Shown here piece by piece: positions 33,620 through 59,842 of a stretch of 64,000 bases of DNA. A program made the translations under genes and the position numbers. The notes below the pieces were generated by a model that was not told the DNA's origin, made no database searches, and saw only the letters and a program-made list of their open reading frames with translations. The DNA lies in NCBI RefSeq assembly GCF_026151205.1, contig NC_087072.1, forward strand, positions 24,641,799 to 24,705,798, given 5' to 3'. Numbering within the stretch: position 1 is the stretch's first letter; each line of letters opens with the position of its first letter. Source of the DNA: Bolinopsis microptera. Its lineage: Eukaryota; Ctenophora; Tentaculata; Lobata; Bolinopsidae.

Positions 33620-34068
33620 TCACTCATTAGATTGTTTCTCTCGGAGACCCTTCCGAGTGAACCCCTTTTTCAATGGGGCTGGGGCAACACTATTTCCCAC
33701 GTTCCCCCTTAAACCCAGAGTTTTATCCTCAGAGATCATTGGGGTCGTATCACAGCTAGATGCTTTTTCTCCTATCTTATCACCGACACTCAGAACTTTG
33801 GACAACCTTCTTGTAAAACCACCCAGTTTACTCACGTCTTGGACCTCATTTTTCTTTCTTGCCTTGTTTTTTCGTTTTTTTGATAAGTCCAATCGTGAAG
33901 CAATAGGAGCTGTGTCAGTGGATATCCTGTAGGCGCCTGATCTGAAGCTGATGCCAGATAAACGTTTATTTTCAACTTTACGTTCTGGATCCAGATCAAT
34001 ATCCATTAAGTCCATGTCCGTGATAGATGAGTCTGAAGAATCACTGCCGGACGATAGACAATCATCGA
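33620..34068 (-). CDS. Candidate alternative cytoplasmic-tail exon H (149 aa)
   Basis: A strong acceptor (TTCTTTCTCAG) at 34069 is followed by an open frame that enters in phase 1 and runs to TGA at 33620. The peptide starts with an acidic-serine patch (DDCLSSGSDSSDSSITD), then FRSGAY, a lysine/arginine cluster (KKRKNKARKKNE), and a C-terminal KKGFTRKGLREK. It shares two motifs with exon G. It is hydrophilic throughout, with many possible phosphorylation sites, as expected for a GPCR tail. Inferred to be the most distal tail option of the receptor at 55.2-59.8 kb; it could instead be the end of an unrelated gene whose other exons I cannot see. Confidence 0.6.
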
Positions 34069-34498
34069 CTGAGAAAGAAGGGAAATGAGGAGGTAAGAAT
34101 GCAGTTATTACATGCTGTTATTCAGACGATGCTATTGCTGTCAAATGCGTGGGATCTCTGAGTTTGAGCCCGACTTGAAACCCAAAAAACTGCATTCAAA
34201 CACTTCGAACATGGATTAAAATGCGTTCATTCAATTTTAGGAGAATGTTTGGTACAATTTTTGTAACAATGACGAAACTAAGTTGTAAAATGTTCATACA
34301 ATTTACAAATCAACATCCACATTTATATTATAGTATTATAGAGGTATTTTACTCAACAACATCTATTTGAAGCTGATGTAGTTACTGAATCCATCTACAA
34401 AATATGTCAACAGGTTTTTTTTATATTAAAACTCTATAACATGCAGCATAGTACATTTAAGATATTAATTATGATTCATAATACATCAAATTATCAAA

Positions 34499-35262
34499 TT
34501 AAATGATGTCCTGATCAGAATCACCTCCATGATCCACATCAGGCCCACAACCAGTCCCTACACTCTCGAAACTGTCAGTACCACCCAAGGTGTCAGATCC
34601 TACTCCAGAGTCTACATTAACACCTTCATTAACAGTTTCCTCTTCCTTGCTGGCCATTCTTTCAAGCTTCTGCACTTGTAATCGAGCCTGTTCCGCTTTT
34701 AGGGCCAGCTTTTCCCTCAACCCCTTTCTCAGATACCCTTTAGTTGGAGCAGGCTGTTTCTCAACAAATCCTGGTTCTACGTCTGATAGAGATGAGGTGT
34801 GGTGGTTACGAGACACTGGTGATGTTTGATGGTTAACGAACACAGTGGACCCTAACCCCGCCAGTTTTGCTGCCTCGGAGACCACACCAAAGAAAGTCTC
34901 CTGGTACTTGCCAGTGGCAACGTACAGTGAAGTTTGTGTAGCGATAAGGTTGTTTAAGATAAGGGAGTCTGGTTGTTGTTTCCCGTTGCAGACCATCAAG
35001 CTTTCAGTGCTTGAACCTGTTGCTGGTGAACTATTGCTCTGTTTCAGTGACCTTGGTTTGGGTTTTGTAGGGACTCTAAAGCTAAAGGCAGACCCGGAAA
35101 AATTGAAATTAAGGGAATTAAAGAAAAGGTCAGCATGTTTCAGGTCCTGAGAGGTCTCCCTAAGATATGTCCCAGTTCTAAAGTTCACTACACTTCTTCT
35201 AGGTTGTGGAGGGCAGTGTTCCTGCTCCTTGCTGCTCTCAATTAGTGTTTCTAATCTCCTGC
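34499..35262 (-). CDS. Candidate alternative cytoplasmic-tail exon G (254 aa)
   Basis: Acceptor CATCGTCATACAG at 35263, phase 1 entry, open to TAA at 34499. It begins RRLETLIESSKEQ, then NFRTGTYLRE, serine/threonine-rich segments, the motif PAPTKGYLRKGLREK, a likely short coiled coil (LALKAEQARLQVQKLERM) and an acidic C-terminus ending DQDII. It is the longest tail option. The C-terminal D-x-hydrophobic end could be a class III PDZ ligand. Motifs FR(T/S)G(T/A)Y and RKGLREK are shared with exon H, suggesting exon duplication. Confidence 0.6.
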
Positions 35263-36396
35263 CTGTATGACGATGAGGAGTTTAAATATGAACTGGACAC
35301 GATTCGTTAACAGCTTAACTGATTGATTAAATTTAACGAAGACACTTAACAGATTTTTTTAAAATTACCAACATTCCAACAATCTTACATTCTAATTATG
35401 ATAATATGGTGGACACTGGATAACAAAACATCACTTGTGATCACGATTTGTATAGTTGATTTTATAAGTTATGTATTTCCTAAACATACTGGGACATGAA
35501 CTTTTTCTACTGGTGCTTCACTCACAATTATCACTTTGTGTAATGATTATGGATGCTGCACTTTCATTTTTCACGATGCTTAACTATTATTAAGGAAAAA
35601 TAACACCAGAACATTTAATATTATGCTGAAGAATATACTCTCAAAATTGACATATTATGATAACAACAGTAAAAATGCTAAAATTCCTTGTTTTGAAAAT
35701 TCGGATTAAATGTTAAATTAAGACCAAGGTTAATCATGAGGAGGTGATTGATTTTCATTTTCTTCTTGAGCAAAAAATTTACCTAGGTAGTTCAAAATTG
35801 TGCAAAATGTTGGCAATGGTAACATTTATTTACAACGGAAATATGGGTCACCTCCCCACAATTACCATCGTTCATCAAACACAATATAATGGTTCGAAAG
35901 AGGAACAATTTTCAATTATTGTTTTTTAAGACAAAACTAAAATTAAAACATCTAATGGTAGTATCAGTGCCTTGAAAGAACCCAGTCAACAAAAAGTCTA
36001 AAATATGGAAAATAGCGCTAATGATACTTTTACCCGCAGTAAGATAATAACTAGAACAACTAAAAACACCTCATGTCGCTTTTGAAAATTCCAGTGCTAA
36101 GTAAGATATCACTAACAACAATGGTACTTGTAAAATAAAGTATTCAATTATATTTACAAAAGAAAAATAAGGTTAAGGACGTCTGCTGATCGAATTTCGG
36201 CCAAAAAATACGAAGCTGAAATTTAAAGTTGACATTACATTATGTCTGCTAGTTGTAAAGTATTGATAATCTTTAGGAGTCTCATAGACAAGCCCAAGAC
36301 GCATCTCACGAAAAAATTGAGCGTAAATTAATGATGTTGGATAATTTAGCAGGCGTCCTAACTATAGACACAAAAACAAGTGCTGAAAACATACAA
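35263..36396. other. Intervening DNA between tail exons G and F
   Basis: AT-rich, no convincing exon. A plus-strand frame at 35744-35929 resembles nothing known. A minus-strand AATAAA lies near 35825, downstream of exon F's stop. Confidence 0.4.
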
Positions 36397-36959
36397 TCAA
36401 CTGCCCGCTTCCTCTAACACAACACCATTACCCGTGATCTGAGGTTGCTGCTGCACATAAAAGTCACTTTCACGACACGGCACGTCCCGACACGGCACTT
36501 CACGACACGGCACGTCGCGACACGGCACGTCACGACACGGCACGTCACGACACGGCACTTCACGACACGGCACGTCGCGACACGGCACGTCACGACACGA
36601 CACGTCACGACACGGTACGTCACAACACAGCACGTCACGACACGGCACGTCGCGACACGGCACGTCACGACAAACCACGCCATTTGAGTTTTCAACTTCC
36701 TCTCTAAGGGGATTGCGAGCAACGAAAGTGTCCGGGGCGGGTAATAGAACCCCAAGGCCGTCTCCTCGACTCGACGACATTGTTAAGACTTGAGTCTGGC
36801 CTAAGCCTTCTTCCTTACCTTCAACACCGACCTTCATCTTCCCGACAAAAGTCTTAGCGATGGCTTCGCCCTTGTTATGGCTGGCGGCGATGATGAAGTC
36901 TTGGGCTGCTTTTTCGACAGGAGTGAGGCGATGTCGGGTGCTGATCAACTTACGGGGAC
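36397..36959 (-). CDS. Candidate alternative cytoplasmic-tail exon F (187 aa) with CRDVP repeats
   Basis: Acceptor TTTTCCCCAATAG at 36960, phase 1 entry (PRKLISTRHRLTPVEKAAQD), open to TAG at 36397. The middle is an array of about 14 pentapeptides CRDVP/CREVP encoded by a 15-bp minisatellite; the end is QITGNGVVLEEAGS. Cysteine every fifth residue in a cytosolic segment could give palmitoylation or metal binding; this is speculation. The 15-bp period keeps the frame. Confidence 0.58.
36474..36672. repeat. 15-bp coding minisatellite in tail exon F
   Basis: About 14 units of CACGACACGGCACGT-type sequence with small variants (GTCGCGA, CTTCACGA). Variants change D to E but preserve C, R, V and P in most units, which hints at selection for the peptide. 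Confidence 0.85.
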
Positions 36960-37653
36960 CTATTGGGGAAAAGTTGTCAGAGAATTTGTCAGAATTCTTG
37001 AATCTATATTATTTAGAATGAAACGAAATAGAGTAATTTTTGACTGCTGATTATGTGAGCTCATTTGATTATCTCTGTGTTACACAACTATCTTAATATA
37101 ATAACTTAGCAAAAAATCAATTTGTTATAAATCCATCTCACACTTAAATCACACATGCCTTTGTTTTTTATTGACATGGAGGGTGGATCGATAGAATTGA
37201 CCCTTTTGAGTGTCATGTGCTTAGCCCATATTACATGGCGCTAAGCACAACAGTAAAAAACACAGTAAAAAACAGCGCACTTTACCATCCAATTTGAAAA
37301 TATCTCACTTGTGATTCAGAAACAGCGTTTGTTAAAAAAGCAAATGCTTTGAAGTGAATAAATAAATAATAAATGATTATATTTGTAAATAATTTGTTTC
37401 AATCACTTTCTTCAGCAGCAGCAAAATTAGAATCGGAAACTATGCCAATAAATTAAAACCATCACAATAGAGGCTGATTGGCCACACAAATGGTAGACGA
37501 TAGAAGAAGGACAAGACGTCACGAGGCTGACACTTATTGTTGCCTCACTTCTTACGCCCAGATAAACATTACTACCACTACTACTAACCAACTACACTAA
37601 ACTACAGCATTGTTATAAAACGATGAAACACCACATGCTGGTAGAACCTGCAG
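36960..37653. other. Intervening DNA between tail exons F and E
   Basis: Nothing recognised. A minus-strand AATAAA lies at about 37.17 kb, about 490 bp past exon E's stop. Confidence 0.4.
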
Positions 37654-37796
37654 CTACGCCTCCGAATCGTCCTCAGAAATGACTGTTATTCTGGAGGAGA
37701 TAGAGCTTGCGTTTCTCAGCTTTACATCTGACATTCTGACTGTACTGCCTGTACTGACGGCCCCATTTTCGGCGGTCGAATCGTAGTTCACATTTA
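37654..37796 (-). CDS. Candidate alternative cytoplasmic-tail exon E (47 aa)
   Basis: Acceptor AAACTATTCCACAG at 37797 and phase 1 entry give VNVNYDSTAENGAVSTG, then a serine-rich stretch (RNASSISSRITVI) and an acidic end SEDDSEA before TAG. Dense Ser/Thr beside basic and acidic residues suits kinase and arrestin regulation of a receptor tail. Its start resembles that of exon D (VNPDYQS). Confidence 0.55.
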
Positions 37797-38432
37797 CTGT
37801 GGAATAGTTTTCATGCTATGCTGTGGTTCCTAGAAATCAAAACTTGTTGTTTGATGTGGTCGGGTGTGTTGAAGTGCGGTGAATTTTATTATTTCTGTTA
37901 TTACAACATGCCGAGACAAAGGATATAGAGACCCGAGGTTTTTAAAATAATAGAAATTCAATGATAAACGGAAAGTGAGTGCAGATAATCTTACAAATTT
38001 TGGATTTCAGGACAGTGATCAATAAGTCATTGATATGCATGATCACTGACATTGAAAGGACAAAGCATGCATTGAAACATCAAGATTAAACAATTCCTTC
38101 ATGATCATCATAACAATGACATATTAATACCAAAACATCACTATGAATAGGATGACATTGACAGTATAGAGAGGGTTAACGTCTAAACACGAACTTTTGA
38201 ATCATGCGGTGCGAAAAGGGAATGTTTTACACATCTACAGAGTATGAAGAATGACCTCATGATATTTCAATTTTCATACTTATTAATTATCTGATTTTCA
38301 ATTAGTCCTTCCCGGCAACTATGTCATCTGGTGAAAATGGTTTTATTTGAGTTGAGTGCTATTCAGCTATTACAGTAGGTTATTTCAGCAACTTTTATCA
38401 TTTAAACTCATACCAATAAAATATCTGGCGTA
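37797..38432. other. Intervening DNA between tail exons E and D
   Basis: No exon or repeat recognised. Confidence 0.35.
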
Positions 38433-38626
38433 TTATGGATAAAATTGATAATAACCGAACAGAGGGTGCCGGTCACCATGGTTACCTAGGTTAATGATTC
38501 TCGTTCTTGTTTTGTTCAGATTTCTAGTTATTTGTCTGTCACTGTCCCTTCTGTTGACACCCTGGCTATAAGTCCGGGAAGGTATTTCCACTTCGGATGT
38601 TTCTGGTGACTGGTAGTCAGGGTTAA
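38433..38626 (-). CDS. Candidate alternative cytoplasmic-tail exon D (64 aa)
   Basis: Acceptor ATACCTCTTCCTACAG at 38627, phase 1 entry (VNPDYQSPETSEVEIPSRTY), hydrophilic to the TAA at 38433. An internal CCTAG/GTAACC donor near 38.487 kb is also in phase 1, so the exon could either terminate or splice on to the next tail exon. Confidence 0.48.
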
Positions 38627-39364
38627 CTGTAGGAAGAGGTATTTTACCAGGACAAGATCCGTGCTCAAGTGTGCTATAGCTCTTATTGTATAAATACATG
38701 AGAGTAGCAAGATTAAGAGGTGTGCTGTTAGTAAAATTAAGTCAGGACTCAGCAATACTCGATACCTCACATTATTTCTCTCACTGCACAATTTCCGACT
38801 CGATTACATACGCACTGAGTAAAAATCTCAATGGAATACTAAATCTCGCTTAATTTTGACTTTGACGATTAGTAACAGATACTAAAATTAATTAATGACG
38901 TAATTAACTTCGTGTTTGGTGTGATAAATCCATGATATAACCTTTGGTAATGCGCGCGCAAATAGTTATAGTGAACGCAGAAATTTCAAATTGAATCAAG
39001 ATTTCTACATTGCGCCGTACGTTTATAAGGAATTGGAAATGCACATACAACTCGCCTTCCGTGCATGCTTGTCGACGATCTTGCTGTTCTTTCTGAATGT
39101 ATTCGCACAGATTCCCAAGCACCAAAAGAACATTCCAGCATGCGTGCTAAAGAATTTCGTGCTAGATCCCAAGATTATCTTAAACTGCTCACTCAAGATT
39201 ATCATAGTCTTTTGCGAGATAAAAATAGACCTCAGTTTTTCTAATTGGAAGACAAAGAGATACCGCCGACATTCGGTGATATTCGAAACGAAGTGTGAGA
39301 TCTTTTTTCTAATTTGATCTTGAATGGATCACGGTACAATTATCGCTTCCTACTCATCTAAAGA

Positions 39365-39501
39365 CTAAACCACTCTGATAAAGATACGAATCGAAATTCG
39401 ATGCACTGAATTGAGTCTGTATAAGTGTATATTCTTCAAAACCTCAGTAAGTGAAAATAAAACTGGTGCTACCTCCTCTAATGAGCTCTTGAAAATTACC
39501 T
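39365..39501 (-). CDS. Weak candidate tail exon D0 (45 aa)
   Basis: A good acceptor (TCATTTCTCATTTCAG at 39502) and phase 1 entry give EVIFKSSLEEVAPVLFSLTE, then an Ile/Arg-rich end to TAG. The composition is less tail-like than that of the other exons and chance is a serious alternative. Confidence 0.3.
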
Positions 39502-41621
39502 CTGAAATGAGAAATGACCTGATTGAATGGAAAATCTTGGCCCGCCTACCACTAACTCGTACAAAATAGTGAAAATAGTAGTGGCAGTGCAATGTCGAAT
39601 GATGAAATGACTAATAACTTCTAGATTGTTCTCGGACCTCATTCTTCTACAATCACGTCTGCCGATGGGCTTAAGAGGACAACATCCATTAAACTTCCCC
39701 TCTTTGGGTACACCAGAATGTCTGTTTTATAAAACAGATGGGTTATTACATGTCTAGGGCTACATGTACCGGTATTGTGATCGACAGACTTTAATGTGGC
39801 ACGTGGTATCTTTCGTCTTAGTACATAATAAACAGCTGGCCAACATTACTTTCAATCACGCTACCGTTTAAATTTGGAGCGTAATGTTCAGTGCGAGAAT
39901 TAATCAAATTCAAATTAATCTGACTAATTGGGTGGACTGTCGTGTTAAATCAGCAGGTAATTTTGACAATTAGTTAATACATCCGCGCTAGCCCTCAACA
40001 ATGCCTGTAGTCGTCGTGTAATGAAGGCAGTAACAAATTGGCAGTGTTTTAGTTCAGTTCAAGTGTTCAACGTTTTAATTAGGTCTAATAAAAGCTAAGA
40101 TTATAGTGTTACAGTTACACGCTGTTTTCAATTATAGCGTGTCAGACCACTTGGTTGGAAAACTCTTCCAACAGTTTAAAAGTTAACATGATGGGCTTCG
40201 TGTTAAAGGTATGGAACCCAAAACTAACAACCCCGGCCTCGTACAAGCAAATTCTTGAAATAACGTTTCTTTGCGTCACGTACCGTTTAGCCAGGCCTGG
40301 GGTCTAATGGTTCGTAATTTAATTTCCTTTCAGAGGTTCAAATCTAGAGAAGAGCATTCTCAAAATCCAGCAATAAGGAAAGTTGCGTACTGTTTTAAAT
40401 TAGGCGATGAAATTTCTAGATGTCATATGTTATCTAGAAATGTCTAGAAATGTCAGCACTCACTATTTGGGAATTACGATTTTGTTTTCGATATTTATCA
40501 ACCAAAGCAACCACTTATTCAATTTATGCCAAGAATGAAGTCGAGAACAACGCAATTAAAGAATTTAGATGGAAGCTGTTCAATAATTTTATCACTCAAA
40601 ATAATTTCAAGAATGACACACATTTACCACAATCTTCAGCTATCTGGTGTCAAAGGAGGAGGATTGCGAGGATAGGGGTCCTGGAAAATATGAACTTGGT
40701 GAAATTCTTTAAAAAATTATCGAGTTCTTGGACGATGTTAATAATATGGGAATGCCAATTGTGACATTTATCAAATAGCTGAGGTCATGAGCATGTAACT
40801 GATTTTGAAAACACAGATTGATTTTATTTGCGACTGATAGAGCTTGAATTATTCTAATCGACTAGCTTGTGTCCCGTGTCTTCGCTACCTGGAAGCAGAT
40901 GGCATATTTTACTCTATCACTAGAGGTTAATGTCTTCACCGAATATAGAAGACAATCATGTTCAGCTATAACACTATAAATCGTCCAATATAACACCTAT
41001 AATATACGGCTGGTATCGGATATAAAAAACGTGATGGCAGGTCTAGAGTTGACAAGAAACCTAAATTATATCCTCAAACCTTCCAAATATAATAGGATGA
41101 CCTGAACTAAGTAATTACAAGCCAAATAGAGAGGTTGACAGGGACTAAAGTGCATTACGCCACACCAGTTCATATCCTGTTGTCTACTTGTCAAGTGTCA
41201 AATACTAATTGAAATATCTAATCTAGGTACGTTCAATAATCAATATCTTGCACAGTTTTACCCCAAATAACCCACAATGACGAAACTTCTATAGTGAAGT
41301 ATTTCAGCAGAACCCTTTGATATAAGCCATACTGGCATTCCACGTCACAGACACCAGAAATCAACACACATTGTGGAACTATAACACGGATGCTTCTTAT
41401 AGCATGTTCGATCATTGTGAGGTTTCTCTTAAAGTTAATGAGTTGTTTTAGGTTTTACGCCGTCACAAATAAAATGAATTTGGAAAAGGATAATTTAGAC
41501 CTTTTTCTTTCGACATCAAGTGAAAAAATGATATTCATGCAAAATCGTACAGTAAATTTATAAGAATAATGCTCTATAGCTCCTCGATAATAACGCTGTC
41601 CACTCACATCATTCTTTAATC
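39502..41621. other. Intervening DNA
   Basis: AT-rich; small open frames on both strands (for example 40450-40764 plus) show no recognisable domain. Confidence 0.35.
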
Positions 41622-41878
41622 TCACACACCACACGACACGGTACTTTGGACGCGCGCCATATTGCACTTCTCGCGCCCCGCACTGCCCATCACACGTGCG
41701 CTCACAGTCTTGTTCAGGGCCCGAGGAATGCCTCCGTTCAGAGCCCGCGGAACTCCTTTACCCGGAGGTCGGGAAAAGGAGTCCGTCTGGACGAGTTGGG
41801 ATGTGTTGCTGGCTGCTGTTAGGTCGTTATCGTCCAGAACCACTTCCAGAGATCGAGAAGATTTGTACTTCTTCTGGG
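41622..41878 (-). CDS. Candidate alternative cytoplasmic-tail exon C (85 aa)
   Basis: Acceptor CCCGTTTAATTCAG at 41879 and phase 1 entry give AQKKYKSSRSLEVVLDDNDL, a Ser/Thr-rich centre (ASNTSQLVQTDSFSRPP) and two related GVPRALN/GIPRALN words, ending STVSCGV before TGA. Basic start followed by acidic and Ser/Thr patches is typical of receptor tails. Plus-strand frames here are shadows. Confidence 0.55.
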
Positions 41879-42329
41879 CTGAATTAAACGGGATATAATA
41901 TATGTGGTTGAATTCTCCTTAGTTTGTTTGAATGAGTAGGTACCCTGATCGTACAGTAACAATATGGAACTTGGACAATGGACGAGTAACACGCTTACAT
42001 CATGGACAGATTTTGTATACGACAGACAGAACATTTCCATCTAAAACCGAACAGAATTTATACAAGTTGATTTCACGGAACCAGCAGCAAATTTACCAGC
42101 GTTCAGGTTTAACCGGTAACCGGTCAGCGTTTTGACAAATGAAAACTGATATTATATTTCATTACTTCTTACTTTCTTAGGAACTTAGGAAGGGGAGCAA
42201 AAGTGTTTAATCACACCACTGTCAACAGCTAGATCAAATCAACGATTTTCAGCGGAAAAAACTCATCATAAAATAATCAACCCAGCAGAAAATAAACAGC
42301 TCCCTCACACTCATTTTGCCTACTCATTT

Positions 42330-42428: not shown

Positions 42429-43100
42429 CTGAGAGATACACGGTGGGTGTGACCTTTAAGTTTAACCACCATATCCATAAGATCATCAAGTTTTGGGATG
42501 TTAAAAAATAAGATATATAAAATGCAGCGCACACAGTGCTCCGTTATAAAGACATTTTCACCGTTACAGTTTGTATTTTAGAACGTATAGAAAGAGGAGT
42601 GTATAATTCCGGCCAGCAATGCACCTGTTGTTCTTGTCAACGAGTTGCTGCATGCTCGGTCGAATTGGGTTGATAAAGGAAATAATTGTGAAGGAATGTA
42701 CCAAAAGTCAAGACGGATAAATGTGGAAATTACACACAAGTTCAGCAATATCTTACATATTCTATTCGCATTGAATATTTACATTGGTATCTGATATTCA
42801 CAATGGCTACCGTTAATGTAAAAAGCATTTCCAGAATAAAGTAAAAGATTGGATCCACCTGACAGTCTTAACAAACTAGGCGACTAGACACTTGTGTTCA
42901 ATTATTAATTTCATCGGATTTATCCTTAACTTAAAGATATACCCTCGAACTCAAGTTCTTAGAAAGTAAAGCTGCTATTGTATTTGAGATGTAACAACCA
43001 GAATATATCCAATGCTAGGAAGTTACACACTGTTCACTGTTCAGGTATGAACAATTGCAACTCTACAAGAAGGAAAGCACACTCCTGCTCTAATACTCAC

Positions 43101-43369
43101 CTTCCTACGTAGATGATATCTATTATTTGTAGGTCGCAGAAAAGTGCCCGCGTTTGTCACATTAGTCCCGGCGCGCACCATATTCCCAGAGCCGCCATTA
43201 CAAGTATTGGCATTTATACGACGTTCTATCCGAGGTGAAAACATTGGAGAAGGAGCCCCATTTTTTGCGCCGCGGACCATAGTGCCTTGTGGAGACGTGT
43301 GAGGAGACGCAGCCGGAGAAGCAGCCTGCACCATCTCGCTCATCTCAGAATATAAGTGCTCGGAAGGAC
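43101..43369 (-). CDS. Candidate internal tail exon B1 (90 codons)
   Basis: Acceptor TTCAACCTCCATAG at 43370, phase 1 entry (PSEHLYSEMSEMVQAASPAA), proline-directed serines (SPHTSPQG, APSPMFSPR), then a perfect donor AAG/GTGAGT in phase 0 at 43100. Its exit phase suits exon B2 and no other tail exon, so B1+B2 forms a two-exon tail. If unspliced it runs 19 codons further to a stop at 43041. Confidence 0.55.
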
Positions 43370-45569
43370 CTATGGAGGTTGAACAGCGCTTTTTCTCTGT
43401 ATGGTTAAGAGGATTACTAACAAGTGATTACTGAGAAAGAGGTTGACGAAGAGTTCGTCAATACAAGAGCTTGTATTTGGAGTGGTTTGTTCATGATGAA
43501 CTGTTCATGATGAACTGTAAACATTTTAGAGCAACCTAAAGTACTACGATTGTGCCAATTGCCAAAAAGTGCTTATTTTTTGTTAAAGTGCTTCTTTTGC
43601 TCATAACTGCCTCGCACATTCGTCTTTCATACAAATAAAATGATCGTTCCATCGGCAATATGAAAATAATTTTAAATAATAATTCACTGATGATACGCAT
43701 ACGGGGCTCACGTTTTACTCACAAAATCAGTTCTTCCTAAAGGAGAGATTGATAGAACTATTTTTAATTTATCACGTGTAAACCTACGCTTGAATACTAG
43801 TAAATTCTTTTCGTGTCTTAAGCATAGTGACAAAAGCCACGGATTATATATTCACAGGTACTCAGGTAAAAATTTGGCGAGGCGCACGTTTTACTCACGT
43901 TTTACAGACAAAATCAGTTCCTTAACTAAAGGAGAATTATCAAAATTTTGAATTTTGAATTTTTCTGTTAAAAATTTGAAACCGCATGATTTTACCCTCT
44001 AATATATATTACTTAACTTATGTTGTTAGATGTATTGACTAGATAATAGCTATGTCACCTTCACTGATGAAATAATATTTAAGTGTATGTGCTCATTACA
44101 ACAAACACACGTGAATCATCTTGACGATTAATAGTGCGTTATTTTCAGTAGTACGTTATTTTATGTGAAGTGTGTGGTGACTGGTGATCCATCTTCATGT
44201 GAACTACAGTACGTGTTTTCCAGAAGAGCTATTTTGAAAATATTATTTATAATTCGCACATAATTAAACAAGCATTATAGCAGTTAACTGGAAAATGAAT
44301 GAGTTTTATGCTTAGCGAGAAAATCACGAATAAACCATTAGTTGTAATGAAACATGAATGACTTAGTTCTAATTATTGTCAGAAAACATTGAGTTTGCCA
44401 CATCAAAAGCCAGAATTCAATCCATTAGAATTAAACGATGATGAACAATTTAAAATCCCCACAGATCATCAATTCAAATATTTCGATTTTTGAGTTCAGT
44501 CCAAGTTCAGTCCAAGTTCAGTTCCGACTACCGTCTACCAATTATATACCTAAATTCTTCCCAAAACCAACACATTCCATACTCTGGTGTCACACAGACG
44601 AAATTCAATAAATAATTTTCCTGTCACGTCCAGATACGGCATTATTTCAGCTAGATTCACCTGGAGATGTACTTCTCTCAGTGTTGACATATCTTACTAA
44701 TTCTACTACTTTTAACACACGTCACATGACCTTACTGAACATAGTTCCGTAACCACGCAACTACAAAACTAGTGGAGCAGATGTATTGTAGTTCATATTA
44801 CAGTTCTGATAATACATCTCTACACTACACAAGTTCTTCCCACTTCTTTCAACCAACCAGAGACGTCTCTCAAGGTCACGTGACTTGCCACCAATCTGAC
44901 CCCTTTTACTTGATCACATGACAATCACAAGCGTCTACAGAACACCGAAGAGGTTTAGGAACTGCAGTGAAGAAAAGTGAAGTAATTGTGCGATTAAGTT
45001 CGTGACACTCTCACCCTTACCCGCAAGCAGTGTAGGGCATGTTTTTGAATGTTTAACGTACACAGGGGTTATTAGAAGCAGGAGTATGGGGGTAGTTTAA
45101 CTTGGGTAAAACCTTTTTAACTAGATCAACAGACACGCACTGTCGCAGCTGATGCTCAACTCGGCCTCACAATTCTGAAGAAACTGTATGTCTGAACATC
45201 TAACAGTTACCGAAACTTAGGTTTCTATTCTTAATATAAACCTTTTTCAAACTTCTTGAGGACGATGAAAAGTCGTACTCGTCAGTTCCTAATTGGTTGG
45301 TATTTGAAAACTGCATTCTTTACGATGTTGTGACGATTACGTAATGAACTTAGCTCCTAAATTTACATGTACACCTTGTAAGTTCCCCATTGCAGTAGCT
45401 AAATTGCTTTTTTATACATCTGGAACAATTGTTTTATAGTACACACTGAGCGTCATATGATTGCTAAAACCAATTGTTAATTGTTAAACGTACCATAGAT
45501 GAAGGACAATAGGATGGATACGGCAGGAATTAAAAATAAAATATATCAGAGCATATATTTAACCCGGAT
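43370..45569. other. Intervening DNA
   Basis: Unique-looking AT-rich DNA; no exon or mobile element recognised. Confidence 0.35.
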
Positions 45570-45727
45570 CTACTGTGTCCTGCCATGGCTGCCATAGCTG
45601 CCATTGTTCTCTCGACCAAACACAAGCATGTCACCGTCCAGCTCTTCCTCTCGTATACCGCCCGAATGCACATTAGTCGAATTCCCCCACAATCCACATA
45701 AAAGAATCTTTAGAATTGTAATATTTG
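45570..45727 (-). CDS. Candidate alternative cytoplasmic-tail exon A (52 aa)
   Basis: Acceptor GTTTTCATACACAG at 45728 and phase 1 entry give ANITILKILLCGLWGN, then HSGGIREEELDGDMLVFGRE and a Gly/Ser-rich end to TAG. The first part is hydrophobic, which is odd for a tail; the true acceptor may lie further in. Confidence 0.38.
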
Positions 45728-47081: not shown

Positions 47082-47246
<165 letters not shown>

Positions 47247-51127: not shown

Positions 51128-51247
51128 AGACATCAGTAATATTGGATCTGACTATATCTCGAGCGTTCGAGAGTTTTAACTTAAATTAGACATCAGTAAT
51201 ATTGGATCTGACTATATCTCGAGACTTCGATAGTTTTAACTGAAATT
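51128..51247. repeat. 60-bp direct tandem duplication
   Basis: Two adjacent copies starting AGACATCAGTAATATTGGAT, differing at a handful of positions. Confidence 0.9.
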
Positions 51248-53171
51248 AGACAAACTAGACATGTTTTGGGTCTCTAGCAAGACGCGAGTAGCATCGAAGT
51301 ACGTTTACCAGATTTAAGCCTCGGAATCAATAAAAATGCCAAGAGGGGCGCACTAACGTACTTTATGTTAGAAAGTATGGGTCTCAAGAAACATTCGGAG
51401 TATTAAAACCCTATGTAAATGTTTGCCGCATTCCCATCCCACAAGCTTCTCCGTCAAGAAGGTAGCACTTATTTAGTTTCAAGAAAAGTATTAGTTCCCT
51501 GAGTCGAATTGTAAACGCGTCTGTGGGTCTGAACTGAAATCTGTTGATTGCAACATAAATTAGTGCACTTTGCATCGAGATTATTGTCTGGATTAAAACA
51601 ATTGAAATGTTGGATTTTAAGCTTCAATTACTCACTAACTTGGATATGACAATACTGAATCAGTATTACTAGACGCAAGAAGGAGATGTCAATACTTTAG
51701 TTTACTACGTCTGTAGTCAGTAAACGGGTAAGGAGCCAAAAACATTAATTTTAGCTCCAAAGACAGGAGATATACTGGTTCCATAAGTCTTCTCCCTAAT
51801 TCATCTATACAGAATACATGTAATGTTCCTACATAATCCTGAACTGAGTCTGCACTCCGGACTAATTCAGGGTAATGTGATAGATAATACCCCTTTCAGA
51901 GTTCATGTGCTCAATATTGAGGAACTAAAAGTAAAAAACTAAGTAACAGGATCGTGTGTCCTCAAAATGGGAACATACCGTCTGGGCTGATGAGGTCTGT
52001 ACACTATAGCCGAGAGAGAGCCTAATATCCTATATCTCGTGTTGCTAGGCACCAAGACTTTAGCTGAGTTCAGTTACCAGCTTCCGGCTACAAGATCATA
52101 TCAGAAAGTTTAAAGTTTTAGTTATTACGACAAACTGAGAAAACTTATCTGTCATCTAAGGTCGGTTTAATCACCAAAAATAACCCACCGGAAGGTGTTT
52201 TCTCATCCTTTATTAAAACACACTATCTGATATTTGAACCCTTCAAGCCCACTCTAATTCAGTAAAGGACCCCCACTTATTCAGGTTGTTTGCCTGACAC
52301 TGCCTGGCGTCAAGTGTATCTTATAAGGTTTCATCTGATAAGTCGCTTTTATTGCGACTACATTAACACAGGTTTCTTTCATCATACCTGCATTTCCATC
52401 CACTACATTTAATGTGATTCCAAGTTTGCCAGTTGGTTGAATACACAAGTTGAATTATGTGACATTTGGACTAATTTGACTATCATGTGTTAACGGATTA
52501 TGGCATGATGCGTATTTAGACACAGTGGATTCCACGTCAGTGAACAGCACTTGAACTGCTTCTCTTCGTCAAAACAATCAGAACGTGTTGGTTTCCTGGT
52601 GCAGCACCCAAATCAAGGTGTTACTGCCAACCTCCTCAGAAGACATACAAGCCTAACATTATTGGATTTTTTTATGGGAAAGAATTTGCGCCCTCCTTGG
52701 TGCTGTTTAATTTCAATTAATTAGTCTGATTTTTTAAAAGGGTAGGAAGCTAGGGCTTTTGTTGGCTGAAAATTAGGTAGTCTTGTGGTCTTTTTCTTCT
52801 TTTTCCATGTACGTGACTAAATATCCGAACGAGTTTTGAGATGAGAAAGTGAGTTTGATAGCTTGACCTGCAAATGTCGGCCAATTAGGACTTAATGAAA
52901 CTCAGTTTATTTTTAGACTGAAGAGTGATGGTAGTTAGTCAGCCTGTACACATCAAATTAAAAATTATAAACTTCTCAAAGTCTAATGCATCTATGCTGT
53001 TTGGGCGGTTTTGTGCTCCAAATATACGCCTAACTTCTATAATAAAGAAGAAGAATTCGTCTTGTTCATTCATCTTGGGGTATAAGATACTAGGGCGTAT
53101 GAAACAAGGGCGGTGGACGCAAGAGCGTCTACCCAGAGTAAATACCCGTTTTGGTACGTACTACCCCTGAT

Positions 53172-53299
53172 CTAAACCCGGGTAACCGTAGCATCAGCGA
53201 CTGTGATATTTTGAAGGCCAAGTTTGTCACATGAACATCTAGCTGCTGAGCTGGCTGAGATATTCAAGGAAAATCTCTCAATTATTGGCTCGTTCAAAT
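53172..53299 (-). CDS. Weak candidate tail exon (42 aa) ending in a PDZ-ligand sequence
   Basis: Acceptor AATCACCCAG at 53300 (poor pyrimidine tract) and phase 1 entry give DLNEPIIERFSLNISASSAA, then RCSCDKLG and a C-terminus ADATVTRV. T-R-V-COOH is a classic class I PDZ ligand. If real it would be the option nearest to the receptor core. Confidence 0.28.
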
Positions 53300-55055
53300 C
53301 TGGGTGATTATTTGTGACATCACTATGTTTTGTTTCAAATTTACACGTGAGTAGATCCAATTCTTCGAGCTAAGCTTTACCTCAACCAGACTGTTGAGAA
53401 CATCAAAAAGCTCGTTTGTTCATGTTAATTTGATTCATGTGATTCGCCCTCGTGTCCGCCCTTTTAAGAAAGTACCGCCCTTGTGTCCTATACCCTCGTG
53501 TCCGGTTCCCGTTTTTTACATAACGGTAAACACAAGGTTTGACCTATAATCACATTGTTGCTAAGGCTCTACATTTTACATTCCTAGTAGGGCTTGCTAC
53601 AGTGATCGGTTATATCGGTGAAGATCACAATGTACGGAGTGCCATGATGAAAATATATAATTATGTGAATAGTTAGACTAACCCGATATATCGGGTTATT
53701 AACATAATATAATTATAACTTTACGCGACTCACTGCGGTACTTGAACGAGACAATGGTTATAATAGATTACATTGCACCGTGTTGTAGCGTAACGAATTA
53801 TTGGACTATACAATATATAAATATGCTTCACACATGACTTGTAGAGCCTGCCAATCAAGTGCTTCTTCGATAGTTCAACTTGTAACAGCAAAGAAAGCTT
53901 AAGATTTCGAGTGGTCATTCCTAGGATAAGAATAGATGTCTAAATTCCATAAACTCCAGAGTCTAGTTGTTGTTGTTACAATTGTTGAAAATGTAACTTC
54001 AGTACGTGTCCATAGTACTGGTGACCAGTGATAAGTTGACACAGTGAATATATATTTAACTGGCCCTACGGCGAGGGAGCTGACGCACAACTGTATTAAA
54101 TGGTCACCTTGGTAACCAATCACTGGCTTCTTTATTTCCCCAGTGTATACTGTCGTGTCGATAATGGTGATTATGAATTTGAGTCGCTATCGAACAAAGT
54201 TTTAAGTTTGAGCAGTACACGTGAAGTTGAATATAATTGATTCTATTAAACACATGATTGATTTTATTAAACATCAAAGGATTTAAATATGAAGATTGAC
54301 CCGAAAATGCAATGATTGTGTCAAGTATTTAATGAGTTTATGGCTACTGAGTATTGCCACATCTGGGGTGGGCACCATGTCCATATTTCACTAGCAACAT
54401 GTTTCAATTACGTCGACTGAAAGTGCACGGAGGACTTTTTAAATTTTGGGCGAAACTTGTAATCAATGATTTGAGGAGGAACATTCTTTTCTGCAGGTTG
54501 GAAGTAAGTGAAGTACTGAGGTGTCAAATATTCAATATTTTCGTGTATTTAAATCACAAACGTAACAAATAGTTACGAAAGTCAGGTAAATTTATCTCTT
54601 ACCGCACATTTCAATCCTTTTAAGTGTCACAGGTAAAAACAAAATAGTCTATGAATTAGTGAAGTCGAAATGGTCAAATATGGAACTGAAAGTCGACCAC
54701 GTGGTAATGTAATTATGAAACCTACATATTTCCCTGTAAAATTCTTTGATTATTGGTCGCCCCTAGCAGGCGGTCGGTGGGCAAGGGACACCGATGACAG
54801 ATGAATCTATACTTGAATGTTCAGTACATCACAAGGTAACAAGTGAGCGTAAAGACGTATGACGTGATGGAGTGAAAATAACGCACTATCAAGGACTCGT
54901 GTCTCAGCAAAGTGTTGTTGAGCTGATATTTTGGGAGAATGGGTATTTTATTCCAATCGATTGGTTTAATAATATAAATTGATTGATTTAAAATTGGTTA
55001 TAATATTTCACTTTTTGTATTTTAAACGACTTTCAACACTCTTTAAGTTTGGACA

Positions 55056-55056
<1 letters not shown>
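53300..55056. other. 3' flank of the receptor core; non-coding
   Basis: No gene. A minus-strand AATAAA at 54947-54952 could serve the short read-through form of the receptor, which stops at 55175. Confidence 0.45.
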
Positions 55057-55102
<46 letters not shown>

Positions 55103-55135
55103 ACACGCACAGTCACACTCACACACACGCGGCTT
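55057..55135. repeat. (CA)n microsatellite with degenerate tail
   Basis: About 20 CA units followed by imperfect CACACT/CACACG words, just downstream of the receptor core on the minus strand. Confidence 0.95.
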
Positions 55136-55174
55136 CACAATTCACATTATCACACACGAACCACTCACACACAA

Positions 55175-58100
55175 TCACACAAAAGTACCTGCACCACTAT
55201 TCACAATGCTGTGTAACATACCTAGACGCTCAGGAACGGGGATCTTCTTGCAACAGAAGAAACCAGCGCAGGATTTGAGGACATAGAGGCAGCCAACACG
55301 GTATATCTTGTTACTTAGCCCGTATATCAGCGGGTTCACTACCACTATAAAGGACGTTAACCTGGTCAGGGGAGAGAGAGTGAGTTTCTTTTTGAGATAA
55401 GAAAATGAAATGTTGGCTTATTATCCTCAAGAGTGGCAAAAAGTGAAAAGTATGTAAGTTTATAACTTTTTAACGGAGCCAGGTAACACGACTTTGTAAT
55501 AACTCGGAGATAAGAGATAGCCTGGACATGTTTCATTGTTAAATAACATGTAGTGAACTGTCTACTTGTCTACGTTTTAGTCGTGTTACCTTAGCAACAG
55601 GGCTTAGCTAATTTACGTGCAGTAATAATAACAAGGATTCGTAAGGACTTGCTGCCAGAATAATTACTTGGTGGCAATGCGAGAATCAATGGACATAAAG
55701 CAAGGGTGTCACTTCATGTTGATACATTTTAATTTTATTATTAGCATATGTACATATTTGACTGATAACAGAGTAAATGCCAACATGTTCATGGAAATTC
55801 CCGTGACTCAAACACGTAACAATACCTTACAAACATCCACATTAATTCACTTAATTAACTCAATTAATTATCAAATTAACTTACCTCATGGACCAGAAGG
55901 TAAAATTCTCGCTCAGCCCATGTCCAGCGATGTTGGATATAACGAGAACCTGAAATATTATCTCACTTAGAAAGCCGCATTGTAATGTTACATCGAATTT
56001 TCACCACTGGCCACATTATTTTTAGATGGCACATCCGATACCTATAAACCCATATGTAATTGGTTTTCATCAAACCACGTGACCCAAACCACGTGACCCA
56101 AACCACATGACCCAAACCACGTGACCCAAACCACGTGACCCACACCGTTGAGGGAGCAAGACGACCAGACCGCCACTTTGAGCTTATATGTAGCGCAACT
56201 CATTGGTGAGCCGTGATAGAGTTTACTATTGGCCTGCACCGGGAAAGTGCTGGTGTATTTACACCTTACCTGTCCGTAACAGACGTGCCTCTTTTGTGTT
56301 GGAAATAATGAGATGAGAAAGTAGGTATAAACATACATGAGGAGAATGTATAGATCTCAAATATTTGGCATGGCTGCTAAATGTTGGGCCCCAGGGCTCA
56401 GCCGAGTGTGATCGGTAACTTGGTTAACCCTATAATCCAGCCGGCTAAAGACTACGTTAGTATATTATAAGTCATCAACAGTCTCTCAACTCTGTCTCTC
56501 TGTTATTTATCTGTGTTTTAGTGGCTTTGTGGACAGCGTTACTGCAAATAGTGGAGTGTTATAGAGCAAATAGTGGAGTGTTATAGAGCAAATAGTGGAG
56601 TGTTACTGCAAATAGTGGAGTGTTACTGCAAATAGTGGAGTGTTAGGGAGCAAATAGTGAAGTGTTATAGAGCAAATAGTGGAGTGTTAGGGAGCAGTGT
56701 GGGCAGACCCTTATAGAGCAAATTAAGCGTGGAGAAGGGAGGAACAGCGGAACAGGTGTGGAGTTCAGGTCAACTGTGAACACACTGTATATAATGATCT
56801 GTAGGTAGACTACTAGACTAGTTGTATCACACTGTGTGAGTGTAATAAGAGTATCTAGCAACACATTCCCTACAATCTACATGACATACTGTGGAACTCA
56901 TATAATATATTTCGGGTAATAAGTATACTACTTATCATACTTACTACGTAGGAGGAGGAGGAGAGATGAAACCAATTAAATGTACCATGAGTTATATAAT
57001 ACTATGTACTTAATATAGTAATATTATGTTGTATTCAGTATACACACGTGTTACTTTATCTTAGTGAGGGGGAGTCATTCACCGTGAAACTGAGTCGTCT
57101 CGCATGATGAGACACTTAATTAATATGTCAGGAGTAAAATATAGTTAAAGTAGTGAAAATATATATGTTTTTATTTTACAAGCTTACAAGAAACAGCTGC
57201 TAGCAATGTATCATTACATCATTATTTGATCCCTTCACCTATCCTCAAACAATTATGTCATGGTTCATGGGTATTTAGATGTTTCTGTGTATTTCGATCA
57301 AGAAACAAATAATCCATTAAATCTCGATCCACTGCCACTAAACGTTTTTAAAAATCGTTTAGATCGTTTTTTATTAAATATAGGTTACATCATGGCCATT
57401 GCATAGTGGTTGAAGTTACAGCTCCCCCTCAATACTTCAGTAACAGTACCGAGTGCAGTTTATCCCCGATTGTTCAGACCGATTTCTTCGGTAAATCAGG
57501 GTTTTGTTTTAAACTAAACAACCGAAAATGGAGTTTTATTCAGGAAGAAACAAGTAAATCGACGTATGAACCTCAAGGTAAACCAGGGTACACTAAATCA
57601 GGATCGAAATATCCTCAATAAATATGGTATGATAAGAAATCTCACCATGGTCGGCAGAAAGGTAATGTAGAACACCCCTGCTATCATCAACATCAGAGCA
57701 ATAAACTGCAGCTCTTCTGGCTCAAACTTCTTGATCTGAGGGCGCCTCTTTGCCAGGAAAGATTTGCTCTTGTCCAAGATGGAGGGTTTACCGACCACTT
57801 TATTTTTGACTGTATTTTGGTCTTCGTCGGTGGCGTCGGGCGCTTTCACTGAGTATGTTTTGGAGGCTGATGTCTGAGGAAACAGTCTCAGTTATTTAAA
57901 ATTGGGCAGAACCTAGTTTTATTTTGTTCCCTCCATGAAACAGCAAATTCACACTGTTGTATAAATTGTCGGTCAGCACCACTATAGTTGAATCTAAAAA
58001 CTTACCGGTTTATCTAAAAACTTACCGGTTTTTTGCTACTGGTAGCGTTGAACCTTGGTCTGCGAACCAGGAGAATACGACAGATAAAGAAGACACACGT

Positions 58101-59842
58101 TATCACTATCGTCAGACTTATACAGCCGAACAGCACGAATATTATGGAGTATATTAGGTTTCCCAAACCACTTGACTGCTTAACCTGGTGGAAAGATTGT
58201 TAGAGGCAATGTCACGATACAATAGAACTGTCAGTCTTATCTGCATAGTTTTAATGATAAGATGATTCATGATGATTTTAGAAGACATTTGATTGTTGGC
58301 TACTCTGTAACGCACATCTAAGTCACTGTAGTCCATAAAACAGAAGAAGTATGGTGGATCAGATGAAGTAGTAGTCTCTCCGGCGTCTAAATGTACATTC
58401 CAATGTAACTTAACCTGGAAAATGGTGTAAACTTTCAGCTGAATTTAAGAAATAAGATGTGTTGTGGAATATTTTAGTAACGTGATAAATATTTGTATCT
58501 TTGATATGTTTTGTAGACAAAGCCACGATGAGCACCTATGTGTAACTTACATGACCAATATTTAATATCGGGAGGAGTGAATAGACAAACATGGAGGTCC
58601 ATATTCCATAGACACATTTCCGTAATCGTCCTGCAAAATTAACAATATCATTAGCATATTCTATATCACTGTGACTCGATCCAGTCTGGTTTACCTAAAC
58701 ATTACTTTAAATCTTAGTGTCAAAAGTTTACACAGTGCACGAGTGTATTGCCCTCTATAAGTATTATTAGCGTGTACCAAAATTCATTCACCTGCTGTAA
58801 CAATTTCTCTGTGTACAAAGGGTCTGGTGATAGCTAAAAACCGCTCAATGCACATCATTGTGATGATAAACATTGTGCTCAGCCGGCCCCATACCAGGAA
58901 CAAATAAAACTGAAACAAAATGGCAAATTAGTTGAACAGTATTGTGATGGAGAAATTGAACAAATGGACTTTTACGGGAAATAAAGAAAAGGTTTTTAAA
59001 TCATGACAGTTATTTTTCTTTTCGGCTGTAAATTTCCAATATGATAGATAAATATTTGAATATACTCACAAGTTTACATGTAATATTAAAAGTACTAAAG
59101 GATTGATTGGCTCCGCTGGTACAACTCCCTGGCCAGAATCCTTGCATGTATGCTATTATAGGTATAGGAACTCCTACTAGAGTACTGACTAAATCTGAAA
59201 GATATGAGTTTTGAGTACCTGTTGTCATTTGAACATCTGTTACAAGTCATGATACAACGCTCATTTACTCATTTAGCGTTATAAGCTGTGCCACGACCAG
59301 AAAGAATACAATCAATTAAATATATTTGTTGGTATGGTAACTTCTGTAAAACACTTTAACATGCTCCATTGGGCCTACATGTATCATGTACCAAATGATA
59401 TAACATTGCGGTGTACACTGTACCTGTTATAGCGAGAAAAGATACAAGATAATCTAAACTCCATCTTAAACTTCTGTGTTTCACCCTGATGGAAAAATAT
59501 GATATTCTTAAATTTGTAATTAAATCGACATGCTTAGGGGAAAACATGGCTCAGTTAATACTGAGATACTGTTCAGGTATGCCCAAAATGTCAAAATGTA
59601 CAAACCAGGTAAGAGATGATAATTAAATGACAGAGACTTAAAGATATTCCATAAAACAATAAAAATATGACACGAAAAGAAATGCTGCATTACCCAAATA
59701 TGACAAATATGATAAGGCTGTTGAAGGATAAAACTGCTATGTAGACCACGACCAATGTCAATCCACTGCTCATGTTGACATGACTGTTGATGTTTTCAGG
59801 ACACTTGTCTGAGTTGTCACTTGTATTTGAAAATGAAACCAT
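55175..59842 (-). CDS. Class A (rhodopsin-like) GPCR core, prostanoid-receptor-like, ten exons
   Basis: Exons: 59694-59842, 59424-59485, 59070-59194, 58792-58909, 58551-58630, 58304-58414, 58026-58184, 57646-57873, 55885-55949 and 55175-55361. All junctions keep frame; total 427 aa with the read-through stop. The N-terminus has three NxS/T sites. TM1 ends FNSLIIFVIFG; TM2 has LVSFLAITDLV (LxxxD); TM3 follows the conserved Cys in NITCKLF and carries ERFLAITRPF in place of DRY; TM4 has the conserved Trp and LLPILNIGH; ECL2 supplies the partner Cys in FFCFMDYSD; TM6 reads FYITFLPTM without CWxP; TM7 has NPLIYGL. Helix 8 leads to KSCAGFFCCKK, likely palmitoylated. ERFLAITRP followed by LLP recalls prostanoid receptors, although those lack NPxxY. 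After CTA-G at 55222 a donor GTATGT opens in phase 1, giving access to downstream tail exons; without splicing the protein ends GMLHSIVNSGAGTFV. Confidence 0.85.
56072..56141. repeat. 14-bp tandem repeat with CACGTG boxes
   Basis: Five units of AAACCACGTGACCC, one with CACATG. Each unit carries an E-box/bHLH-type CACGTG palindrome; regulatory role untested. Confidence 0.9.
56543..56700. repeat. Imperfect tandem array of AAATAGTGGAGTGTTA units
   Basis: About seven units of 18-27 bp, joined by either CTGC or TAGAGC linkers. Confidence 0.85.
57987..58026 (-). repeat. Duplicated splice donor at the TM5 exon
   Basis: On the minus strand AAACCG/GTAAGTTTTTAGAT occurs twice, 20 bp apart. The upstream donor (58025) keeps the frame into the TM6 exon; using the downstream one would add 20 nt with an in-frame TAG after three codons. 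Confidence 0.85.

What the first reader, a model, noticed from the sequence alone, without database searches (positions are those of the whole stretch)
33620..59842. One GPCR core with a 22-kb bank of alternative cytoplasmic-tail exons
Seen: a complete ten-exon class A receptor on the minus strand ends, just after a helix-8 Cys cluster, at a consensus donor (CTAG/GTATGT) in phase 1. Downstream on the same strand lie exons A, B1, C, D, E, F, G and H (plus weaker D0 and 53.2 kb). Each begins at an acceptor giving phase 1 entry, codes for hydrophilic, Ser/Thr- or charge-rich peptide and ends in its own stop; B1 leaves in phase 0 and B2 enters in phase 0. Known: C-tail splicing just after helix 8 is used by EP3 and TP prostanoid receptors, 5-HT4 and mu-opioid receptors to change G-protein bias, arrestin binding and trafficking. 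Inferred: this receptor can choose among eight or more tails of 15 to 254 aa. I know of no invertebrate receptor with so large a tail repertoire. In a few cases I chose among several acceptors with phase in mind, so the phase agreement is not wholly independent evidence.
Basis: partly seen in the sequence, partly recalled or inferred. Interest (0 to 1): 0.92.

Follow-up and report, generated by a model that had tools for sequence, protein, structure and literature searches.

The report
Comb-jelly receptor with many interchangeable tails
A single receptor gene in what is probably a comb jelly, most like prostaglandin receptors, is followed by a row of seven credible alternative end-pieces, five of them with relatives in other sequence data, which would let one receptor be built with very different signalling tails, although no RNA has yet been seen that joins them.

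Summary
The anatomy is real and mostly as described. A ten-exon class A receptor (408 aa; 59842-55222, minus strand), of which no second copy was found, ends in an unpaired phase-1 donor. Its nearest solved relatives are prostanoid receptors EP3 and EP4. Downstream on the same strand lie seven supported tail exons: B1, C, D, E, F, G, H. Five (B1, D, F, G, H) have protein relatives in unnamed sequence sources. For D, F, G and H one relative each reads into the intron, and similarity begins at or within two residues of the predicted acceptor, which fixes phase-1 entry. C and E score as coding in a test not trained on them. Exon A is not supported. B1 probably starts 27 bases further upstream. 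D may be a phase 1-1 cassette. G and H share two collinear motifs and look like duplicated exons. Tails C, F and G lack a start codon ahead of much of their sequence, so they need an upstream coding exon. Splicing to the receptor is the best explanation, but inferred: no transcript was available, and my scan for competing exons is insensitive. It works like EP3 and mu-opioid tail splicing. The genome is probably a lobate ctenophore.

The parts
59694..59842 (-). receptor exon 1 (ATG, TM1)
59424..59485 (-). receptor exon 2 (TM2 start)
59070..59194 (-). receptor exon 3 (TM2, ECL1 with WPG)
58792..58909 (-). receptor exon 4 (TM3, ERF in place of DRY)
58551..58630 (-). receptor exon 5 (TM4)
58316..58414 (-). 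receptor exon 6 (ECL2)
58026..58184 (-). receptor exon 7 (TM5)
57646..57873 (-). receptor exon 8 (ICL3, TM6)
55885..55949 (-). receptor exon 9 (ECL3, start of TM7); acceptor scores poorly (-2.8)
55222..55361 (-). receptor exon 10 (TM7 NPLIY, helix 8 Cys cluster), phase-1 donor CTAG|gtatgt
55175..55221 (-). 15-aa tail if the last intron is retained (GMLHSIVNSGAGTFV)
   Evidence: use unproven
45570..45727 (-). exon A, unsupported candidate tail (52 aa)
   Evidence: coding score like background
43041..43396 (-). tail B1 (118 aa with acceptor at 43396; 109 aa with 43369)
   Evidence: relative P0009
41622..41878 (-). tail C (85 aa)
   Evidence: codon score: 0 of 203 background stretches as high; no relative found with a 39-aa piece
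38486..38626 (-). exon D as possible phase 1-1 cassette (141 nt, 47 aa); read on to the stop at 38433 it is a 64-aa tail
   Evidence: relative P0014
37654..37796 (-). tail E (47 aa, 30% Ser/Thr); weak acceptor score 1.8
   Evidence: codon score: 0 of 203; not searched for relatives
36397..36959 (-). tail F (187 aa), with a 15-bp minisatellite and an internal phase-1 donor-like site after 36819
   Evidence: relatives P0015-P0018
34499..35262 (-). tail G (254 aa)
   Evidence: relatives P0001-P0007
33620..34068 (-). tail H (149 aa), related to G by two shared motifs
   Evidence: relatives P0008, P0010-P0012

Best explanation
One prostanoid-receptor-like class A receptor gene uses mutually exclusive 3-prime terminal exons. 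The phase-1 donor after helix 8 (55222) is spliced, across introns of about 12 to 21 kb, to one of the terminal exons B1, C, E, F, G or H (D as tail or as inserted cassette). The ligand-binding core stays the same while the cytoplasmic tail changes from very short to about 254 aa. Shown: the core, tails as coding sequence (seven of eight), the phase match, no second copy of the core found, and G/H motif sharing. Inferred: that the spliceosome joins them, and that the tails change desensitisation and trafficking. G and H carry most arrestin-type phosphorylation patterns; A, B1 and D carry none, C and F one each; G and H share a basic motif (KG[FY]xRKGLREK) that could bind membrane or a partner.
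For: Core rebuilt with nine consistent introns, 7tm_1 97.3 bits. A genome search with the core gave 15 rows at E up to 1: 10 are its own locus, the other five have E 0.097-0.19. Tails B1, D, F, G, H have relatives, with similarity starting at or within two residues of the acceptor in D, F, G, H, one relative each. G and H share an N-terminal block (hhalign P 3.3e-5, probability 72%, 19 columns) and a C-terminal block (blastp E 5.8e-5 within a 9-sequence set, about 15 residues). In seven of eight tails (D is the exception) there is no ATG in frame between the preceding stop and the acceptor; the first Met is residue 90 of 254 in G, 42 of 187 in F, 64 of 85 in C, and in G and F conserved blocks lie before it, so an upstream coding exon is required. 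A codon-score scan of both strands of 33.4-64 kb ranks G, F, H, C, core exon 8, B1, E and D as the leading minus-strand segments; of these, only C and E are independent of the training set. Tails occur only here in the genome apart from one H copy on C10 (9 rows).
Against: No transcript evidence. The scan for competing exons is insensitive: only 3 of the 10 core exons (1, 6, 8) appear in the right frame among the 40 segments shown, so an unseen 5-prime exon in the 9.5-kb gap is possible. Polyadenylation hexamers after the stops are not enriched (0 to 2 in 700 nt against 1.96 expected). The acceptors of A and E are weak by my simple score (3.4 and 1.8). B1 and H codon scores are not exceptional (28 and 11 of 203 background stretches as high) and synonymous-only scores separate poorly. 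The phase-1 excess in a blind acceptor scan is modest. In B1, E and H the first Met is at residue 19, 22 and 19, so for these the no-start argument is weaker. Synteny of tails and receptor in other species could not be checked; relatives were available only as short predicted proteins from unnamed sources.
Confidence: 0.78

Rival explanations
1. The tails are real coding exons but belong to another gene (or several) on the same strand whose 5-prime exon lies in the 9.5-kb gap or outside, not to the receptor.
For: No RNA evidence links them to the receptor. My codon scan would miss many exons: it shows only 3 of the 10 core exons among the 40 segments listed. Nested intronic genes are reported in the ctenophore Hormiphora (PMC8527503, passages).
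Against: Each terminal exon carries its own stop, all enter in phase 1, and the receptor donor is unpaired in phase 1 with only 15 aa of read-through. Among the 40 segments shown, the minus strand of 45.8-55.2 kb has only a CT-repeat (7.5 bits) and 19 codons at 7.0 bits. The tails occur nowhere else in the genome except one H copy on C10, which lies on the strand opposite to the nearest receptor copy there.
Confidence: 0.13
2. The bank is a set of short independent genes whose mRNAs get a trans-spliced leader at these acceptors, as is common in ctenophores.
For: Leaders were on 56% of Hormiphora Iso-Seq reads (PMC8527503, passages), and one leader-like sequence with a donor is in this genome. 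B1, E and H have a Met at residue 19-22, from which most of B1 and H, including the conserved blocks of H, could be translated.
Against: In G, F and C the first Met lies at residue 90, 42 and 64, behind conserved residues in G and F, so these would not be translated. Similarity of H and its relative P0012 starts at the acceptor, before its first Met.
Confidence: 0.05
3. The bank is real but smaller: only G and H (perhaps D and F) are used; B1, C and E are decayed exons or chance open frames.
For: C found no relative (39-aa piece), E and A were not searched, B1 has one relative only, from a 618-base contig.
Against: B1 is 88% identical to P0009 with three single-residue gaps inside; C and E rank high in the codon scores without being trained on.
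Confidence: 0.2

Closest known systems
EP3 prostaglandin receptor (PTGER3) C-tail splicing
   Same: Closest solved sequence to the core (E 1.6e-12). One 7TM core with identical first 359 aa and alternative carboxyl tails giving different signalling and internalisation (PMC7509579, passages).
   Different: Human EP3: 10 mRNA variants, five isoforms, tails 6-59 aa. Here seven supported exons, tails up to 254 aa. The splice point here lies 36 residues after the NPxxY proline; by recall it is nearer in EP3, so intron homology is not claimed.
Mu-opioid receptor OPRM1 3-prime splicing
   Same: Common exons encode the 7TM body and alternative 3-prime exons give distinct tails; 22 mouse, 13 rat and 12 human full-length tail variants (PMC8534031, passages).
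   Different: More variants are proven there than exons shown here; unrelated receptor; exon 4 there encodes 12 residues, the longest tail here 254.
Aplysia tachykinin-related peptide receptor tail isoforms
   Same: Invertebrate receptor with alternative C termini; one isoform also shows phosphorylation-dependent desensitisation (PMC11365428, abstract and outline).
   Different: Two isoforms only; peptide receptor.

Membership tests
Prostanoid receptors (class A) | Closest sequence relatives are prostanoid receptors | tested here: met
   EP3 E 1.6e-12 and EP4 7.2e-11, ahead of the first other receptor, GPR52, 2.1e-8, in the PDB sequence set (60 of 95 matches shown); no tree was built
Prostanoid receptors (class A) | WPG motif in ECL1 (motif label recalled) | tested here: met
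   YMQGFWPG aligned with EP4 YMKGQWPG
Prostanoid receptors (class A) | Arg in TM7 that pairs with the ligand carboxylate (role recalled) | tested here: met
   MRLTSF aligned with EP3 VRLASL and EP4 IRIASV; the EP3 TM7 piece alone scores -1.6 bits
Prostanoid receptors (class A) | DPxxY in TM7 (recalled as the family's form) | tested here: not met
   NPLIY in exon 10, so filed as prostanoid-receptor-like only
Prostanoid receptors (class A) | GTWCF-type ECL2 (recalled) | tested here: inconclusive
   PYFFCFMD aligned with GTWCFIST, Trp absent
Prostanoid receptors (class A) | Activated by prostanoids | not testable with these tools
   needs an assay
Receptors with alternatively spliced C-tails (EP3/OPRM1 type) | One 7TM body ending at a single donor after TM7 | tested here: met
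   phase-1 donor at 55222
Receptors with alternatively spliced C-tails (EP3/OPRM1 type) | Several downstream exons in matching phase, each with a stop | tested here: met
   seven supported exons, all phase 1
Receptors with alternatively spliced C-tails (EP3/OPRM1 type) | Transcripts joining body to different tails | not testable with these tools
   no RNA data held
Receptors with alternatively spliced C-tails (EP3/OPRM1 type) | Tails change signalling, desensitisation or trafficking | not testable with these tools
   only sequence hints
Ctenophore (Bolinopsis microptera) genome | Genome size, GC, chromosome scale and spliced leader | tested here: inconclusive
   264.65 Mb, window at 24.64-24.71 Mb of C1, window GC 0.35-0.41, against 265 Mb, 13 chromosomes, largest 26.2 Mb, GC 38.5% (PMC11797021, passages; that assembly is listed with 346 scaffolds, this one has 232). 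One leader-like match, against 718 leader sequences reported in Hormiphora. Species is inference

The most novel reading that the evidence does not exclude
A prostanoid-type receptor in a ctenophore carries a conserved, combinatorial tail bank: two symmetric phase 1-1 cassettes (D, and F up to its internal donor) can be put in front of terminal tails, giving well over ten receptor forms from one core, with G and H born by exon duplication. Large-scale tail switching of a receptor would then be ancient or have arisen independently outside vertebrates.
Probability: 0.32. Interest if true: 0.82.

Novelty: new variant of a known kind. Interest (0 to 1): 0.62.

Why it matters
The large receptor tail repertoires that I saw in the literature are from mammals (EP3, OPRM1). 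A conserved bank of seven or so tails, several far longer than EP3 tails, in an early-branching animal would show that switching the cytoplasmic tail while keeping ligand specificity is an old or repeatedly invented way to diversify signalling. It also makes a direct test possible: same core, different natural tails, one assay.

Tried and rejected
Tails as parts of a mobile or duplicated segment: rejected, they were found only here except a copy of exon H on C10 (94% DNA; 3 synonymous and 10 non-synonymous changes, dN/dS 1.0; a 7-base gap near the end). The 50-kb C10 stretch that I examined has no match to this receptor's core; it does hold a copy of the window's LDLa-type receptor region, on the strand opposite to the H copy. 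I read the H copy as a decaying fragment. Paralogous receptors with their own banks: none found. Relatives of G in viral contigs: 27 pattern matches, none confirmed. Blind acceptor/phase counting: only a modest phase-1 excess, not used as main evidence. Poly(A) hexamers: no enrichment. Structure prediction of tail G: mean pLDDT 48.6, one confident helix (181-206, pLDDT about 82 over 181-200), otherwise low, so no fold search was made. Homology between other tails (G against F, B1, D; H against F): none; C, E and A were not compared by profile. P0013 (E 6.6) was dropped as not significant.

Literature: in the listings of searches (titles and abstract beginnings; 10 of 10, 20 of 63, 15 of 49, 3 of 3, 2 of 2 and 10 of 25 papers listed) I saw no paper on this receptor or on a comparable invertebrate tail bank. 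This speaks only for those listings of the held open-access library.

Full report
What is there. The window lies at C1:24641799-24705798 of a 264.65-Mb genome of 232 contigs. Size, window GC (0.35-0.41 in 4-kb steps) and position on a contig of at least 24.7 Mb fit the ctenophore Bolinopsis microptera (265 Mb, 13 chromosomes, largest 26.2 Mb, GC 38.5%, 346 scaffolds; PMC11797021, passages). A 32-base part of the Hormiphora spliced leader (PMC8527503, passages) has one match in the genome, with 3 mismatches, at C13:12848936, followed by GTAAGA; the reversed control pattern has none. Hormiphora has 718 leader sequences, so one match is thin support. The species name is inference.

Receptor core. 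Reading the minus strand and joining exons by script gives ten exons, 59842 to 55222, nine GT-AG introns with consistent phases, and 408 aa ending ...NPLIYGLSNKIYRVGCLYVLKSCAGFFCCKKIPVPERL at the donor CTAG|gtatgt in phase 1. Pfam 7tm_1 97.3 bits. The best PDB chains are EP3 (1.6e-12) and EP4 (7.2e-11); the first other receptor is GPR52 (2.1e-8). ECL1 WPG aligns with EP4 and the TM7 Arg with EP3 and EP4, but TM7 has NPxxY, where by recall prostanoid receptors have DPxxY, so I call it prostanoid-receptor-like. A whole-genome search with the core gave 15 rows: 10 at its own locus, five with E 0.097-0.19.

Tails. All eight stated acceptors are present and in phase 1. Tail G: seven of seven hits are relatives (P0001-P0007, E 9e-133 to 6e-28; identity to the window 94, 68, 55, 57, 58, 58, 49%). 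P0003 runs on upstream and becomes similar at HTGRRLETLIE, i.e. within two residues of the acceptor. A chimeric query of pieces of H and B1 gave six hits: four match H (P0008, P0010, P0011, P0012), one matches B1 (P0009), one is not significant (P0013, E 6.6). A chimeric query of pieces of C, D and F gave five hits: one for D (P0014), four for F (P0015-P0018), none for C. P0014 is similar from VNPDY, the first residues after the D acceptor, to INLGN, i.e. to a possible phase-1 donor CTAG|gtaacc after 38486; beyond it similarity fades. P0015 matches from GPRKL (with one identical residue just before it), after the F acceptor. P0012 matches from DDC, after the H acceptor. So the acceptor is pinned by one relative in each case. 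The organisms of P0001-P0018 are not named by the tool; that they are ctenophores is inference. A and E were not searched for relatives.

Coding scores. A codon score was trained on the longest open frames of eight receptor loci of this genome, the core, and the tails B1, D, F, G, H (each left out when tested). It puts C and E above 203 of 203 background open stretches of 45 or more codons; background stretches as high: F 4, D 5, G 5, H 11, B1 28, A 41. Synonymous-only scores discriminate poorly (A 107, B1 114, C 4, D 1, E 10, F 43, G 19, H 66 of 203). A best-segment scan of both strands of 33.4-64 kb ranks G, F, H, C, core exon 8, B1, E and D as the leading minus-strand segments. Here five of the tails and the core were in the training set, so only C and E are independent; simple repeats and antisense stretches score on the plus strand; and only core exons 1, 6 and 8 (3 of 10) appear in the right frame among the 40 segments shown. 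Between 45.8 and 55.2 kb the minus strand shows a CT-repeat (7.5 bits) and 19 codons at 7.0 bits. This gives no sign of another upstream exon that could feed the bank, but does not exclude one. In a list of 16 phase-1 open frames of 40 or more residues behind a passable acceptor, B1, C, D, F, G and H have 22-27% hydrophobic residues and the ten others 36-51%.

Phase. C enters in phase 1 by a good acceptor (score 7.2), E by a weak one (1.8). For B1 the conserved KRCSTS moves the likely acceptor to 43396 (CATACAG|AG, phase 1; the AG two bases on would give phase 0, so B1 is less certain). Seven of eight tails have no in-frame ATG between the preceding stop and the acceptor; D does. In G the first Met is residue 90, behind the conserved NFRTGTYLRETSQDLK block; in F residue 42, behind AAQDFIIAAS; in C residue 64 of 85. 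These must be spliced to an upstream coding exon. In B1, E and H a Met stands at residue 19-22, so the argument is weaker there.

Origin and possible function. G and H share two collinear blocks, [SN]FR[ST]G[AT]Y (hhalign P 3.3e-5, probability 72%) and PAP.KG[FY].RKGLREK (E 5.8e-5 in a 9-sequence set), and so look like duplicated exons serving the same place. F, B1 and D show no relation to G, nor F to H. AlphaFold2 on G gives a low-confidence chain (mean pLDDT 48.6) with one confident helix, 181-206, overlapping the shared basic motif. Counts of two arrestin phospho-code patterns (recalled) are 10 in G, 10 in H, 3 in E, 1 in C, 1 in F, 0 in A, B1, D and the 15-aa end; only H clearly exceeds its shuffles (0.005; G 0.083; E 0.548). 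So tail choice plausibly sets arrestin recruitment and trafficking, as described for EP3 (PMC7509579, passages) and OPRM1 (PMC8534031, passages). This is inference.

Against. No RNA. Poly(A) hexamers are not enriched after the stops. A blind acceptor scan shows only a modest phase-1 excess, e.g. 3, 11, 8 stops for phases 0, 1, 2 on the minus strand against 3, 6, 3 on the plus strand (score 4, 60 aa). Synteny elsewhere could not be tested. Exon A is not supported; B2 and D0 were not tested. One H copy lies on C10, apart from any copy of this receptor's core in the 50 kb examined.

Verdict. A real receptor gene with seven supported alternative tail exons, best explained as an EP3/OPRM1-like tail-switching gene in a probable ctenophore, with longer tails than EP3's and perhaps cassettes. 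Known kind, new and large variant; the junctions remain to be shown.

Noticed in passing
window 12740-15891 (+) and 21969-25194 (-): Two inverted copies of a receptor gene of LDL-receptor-class-A plus 7TM type, facing each other. Pfam 7tm_1 hits both 180-aa pieces (51.4 and 50.7 bits); Ldl_recept_a passes only in the minus-strand copy.
   Followed up: partly
window 9757-30489 against C10:8262001-8276304: Mosaic duplication (73-100%, most long pieces 88-95% identity) between this window and C10, in both orientations, including the LDLa receptor region. Frames at its edges look like a reverse transcriptase by eye; Pfam gave only a below-cut-off DUF6451 match in one of them.
   Followed up: partly
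C10:8276444-8277294: A 94% DNA copy of exon H with flanks, without a copy of this receptor's core in the 50 kb examined; dN/dS 1.0 and a 7-base gap near the end suggest decay.
   Followed up: yes
window 36470-36672: 15-bp minisatellite inside tail F coding for CRDVP-type repeats; relatives P0015-P0018 show no such array, so the expansion looks lineage-specific.
   Followed up: partly
window 38486-38626 and 36819-36959: Exon D and the part of F up to an internal phase-1 donor-like site are both exactly 141 nt; possible pair of symmetric cassettes.
   Followed up: no
tail G (window 34499-35262), residues about 218-223: DSGVGS matches the beta-TrCP degron pattern DSGxxS (recalled); the last Ser is kept in four of seven relatives and is Leu in P0003-P0005.
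   Followed up: no
window 55175-55221: The 15-aa end made if the last intron is retained finishes in TFV, like a class I PDZ ligand (pattern recalled); conservation unknown.
   Followed up: no
C13:12848936-12848967: Spliced-leader-like sequence with a GTAAGA donor, the only match in the genome at up to 3 mismatches.
   Followed up: partly
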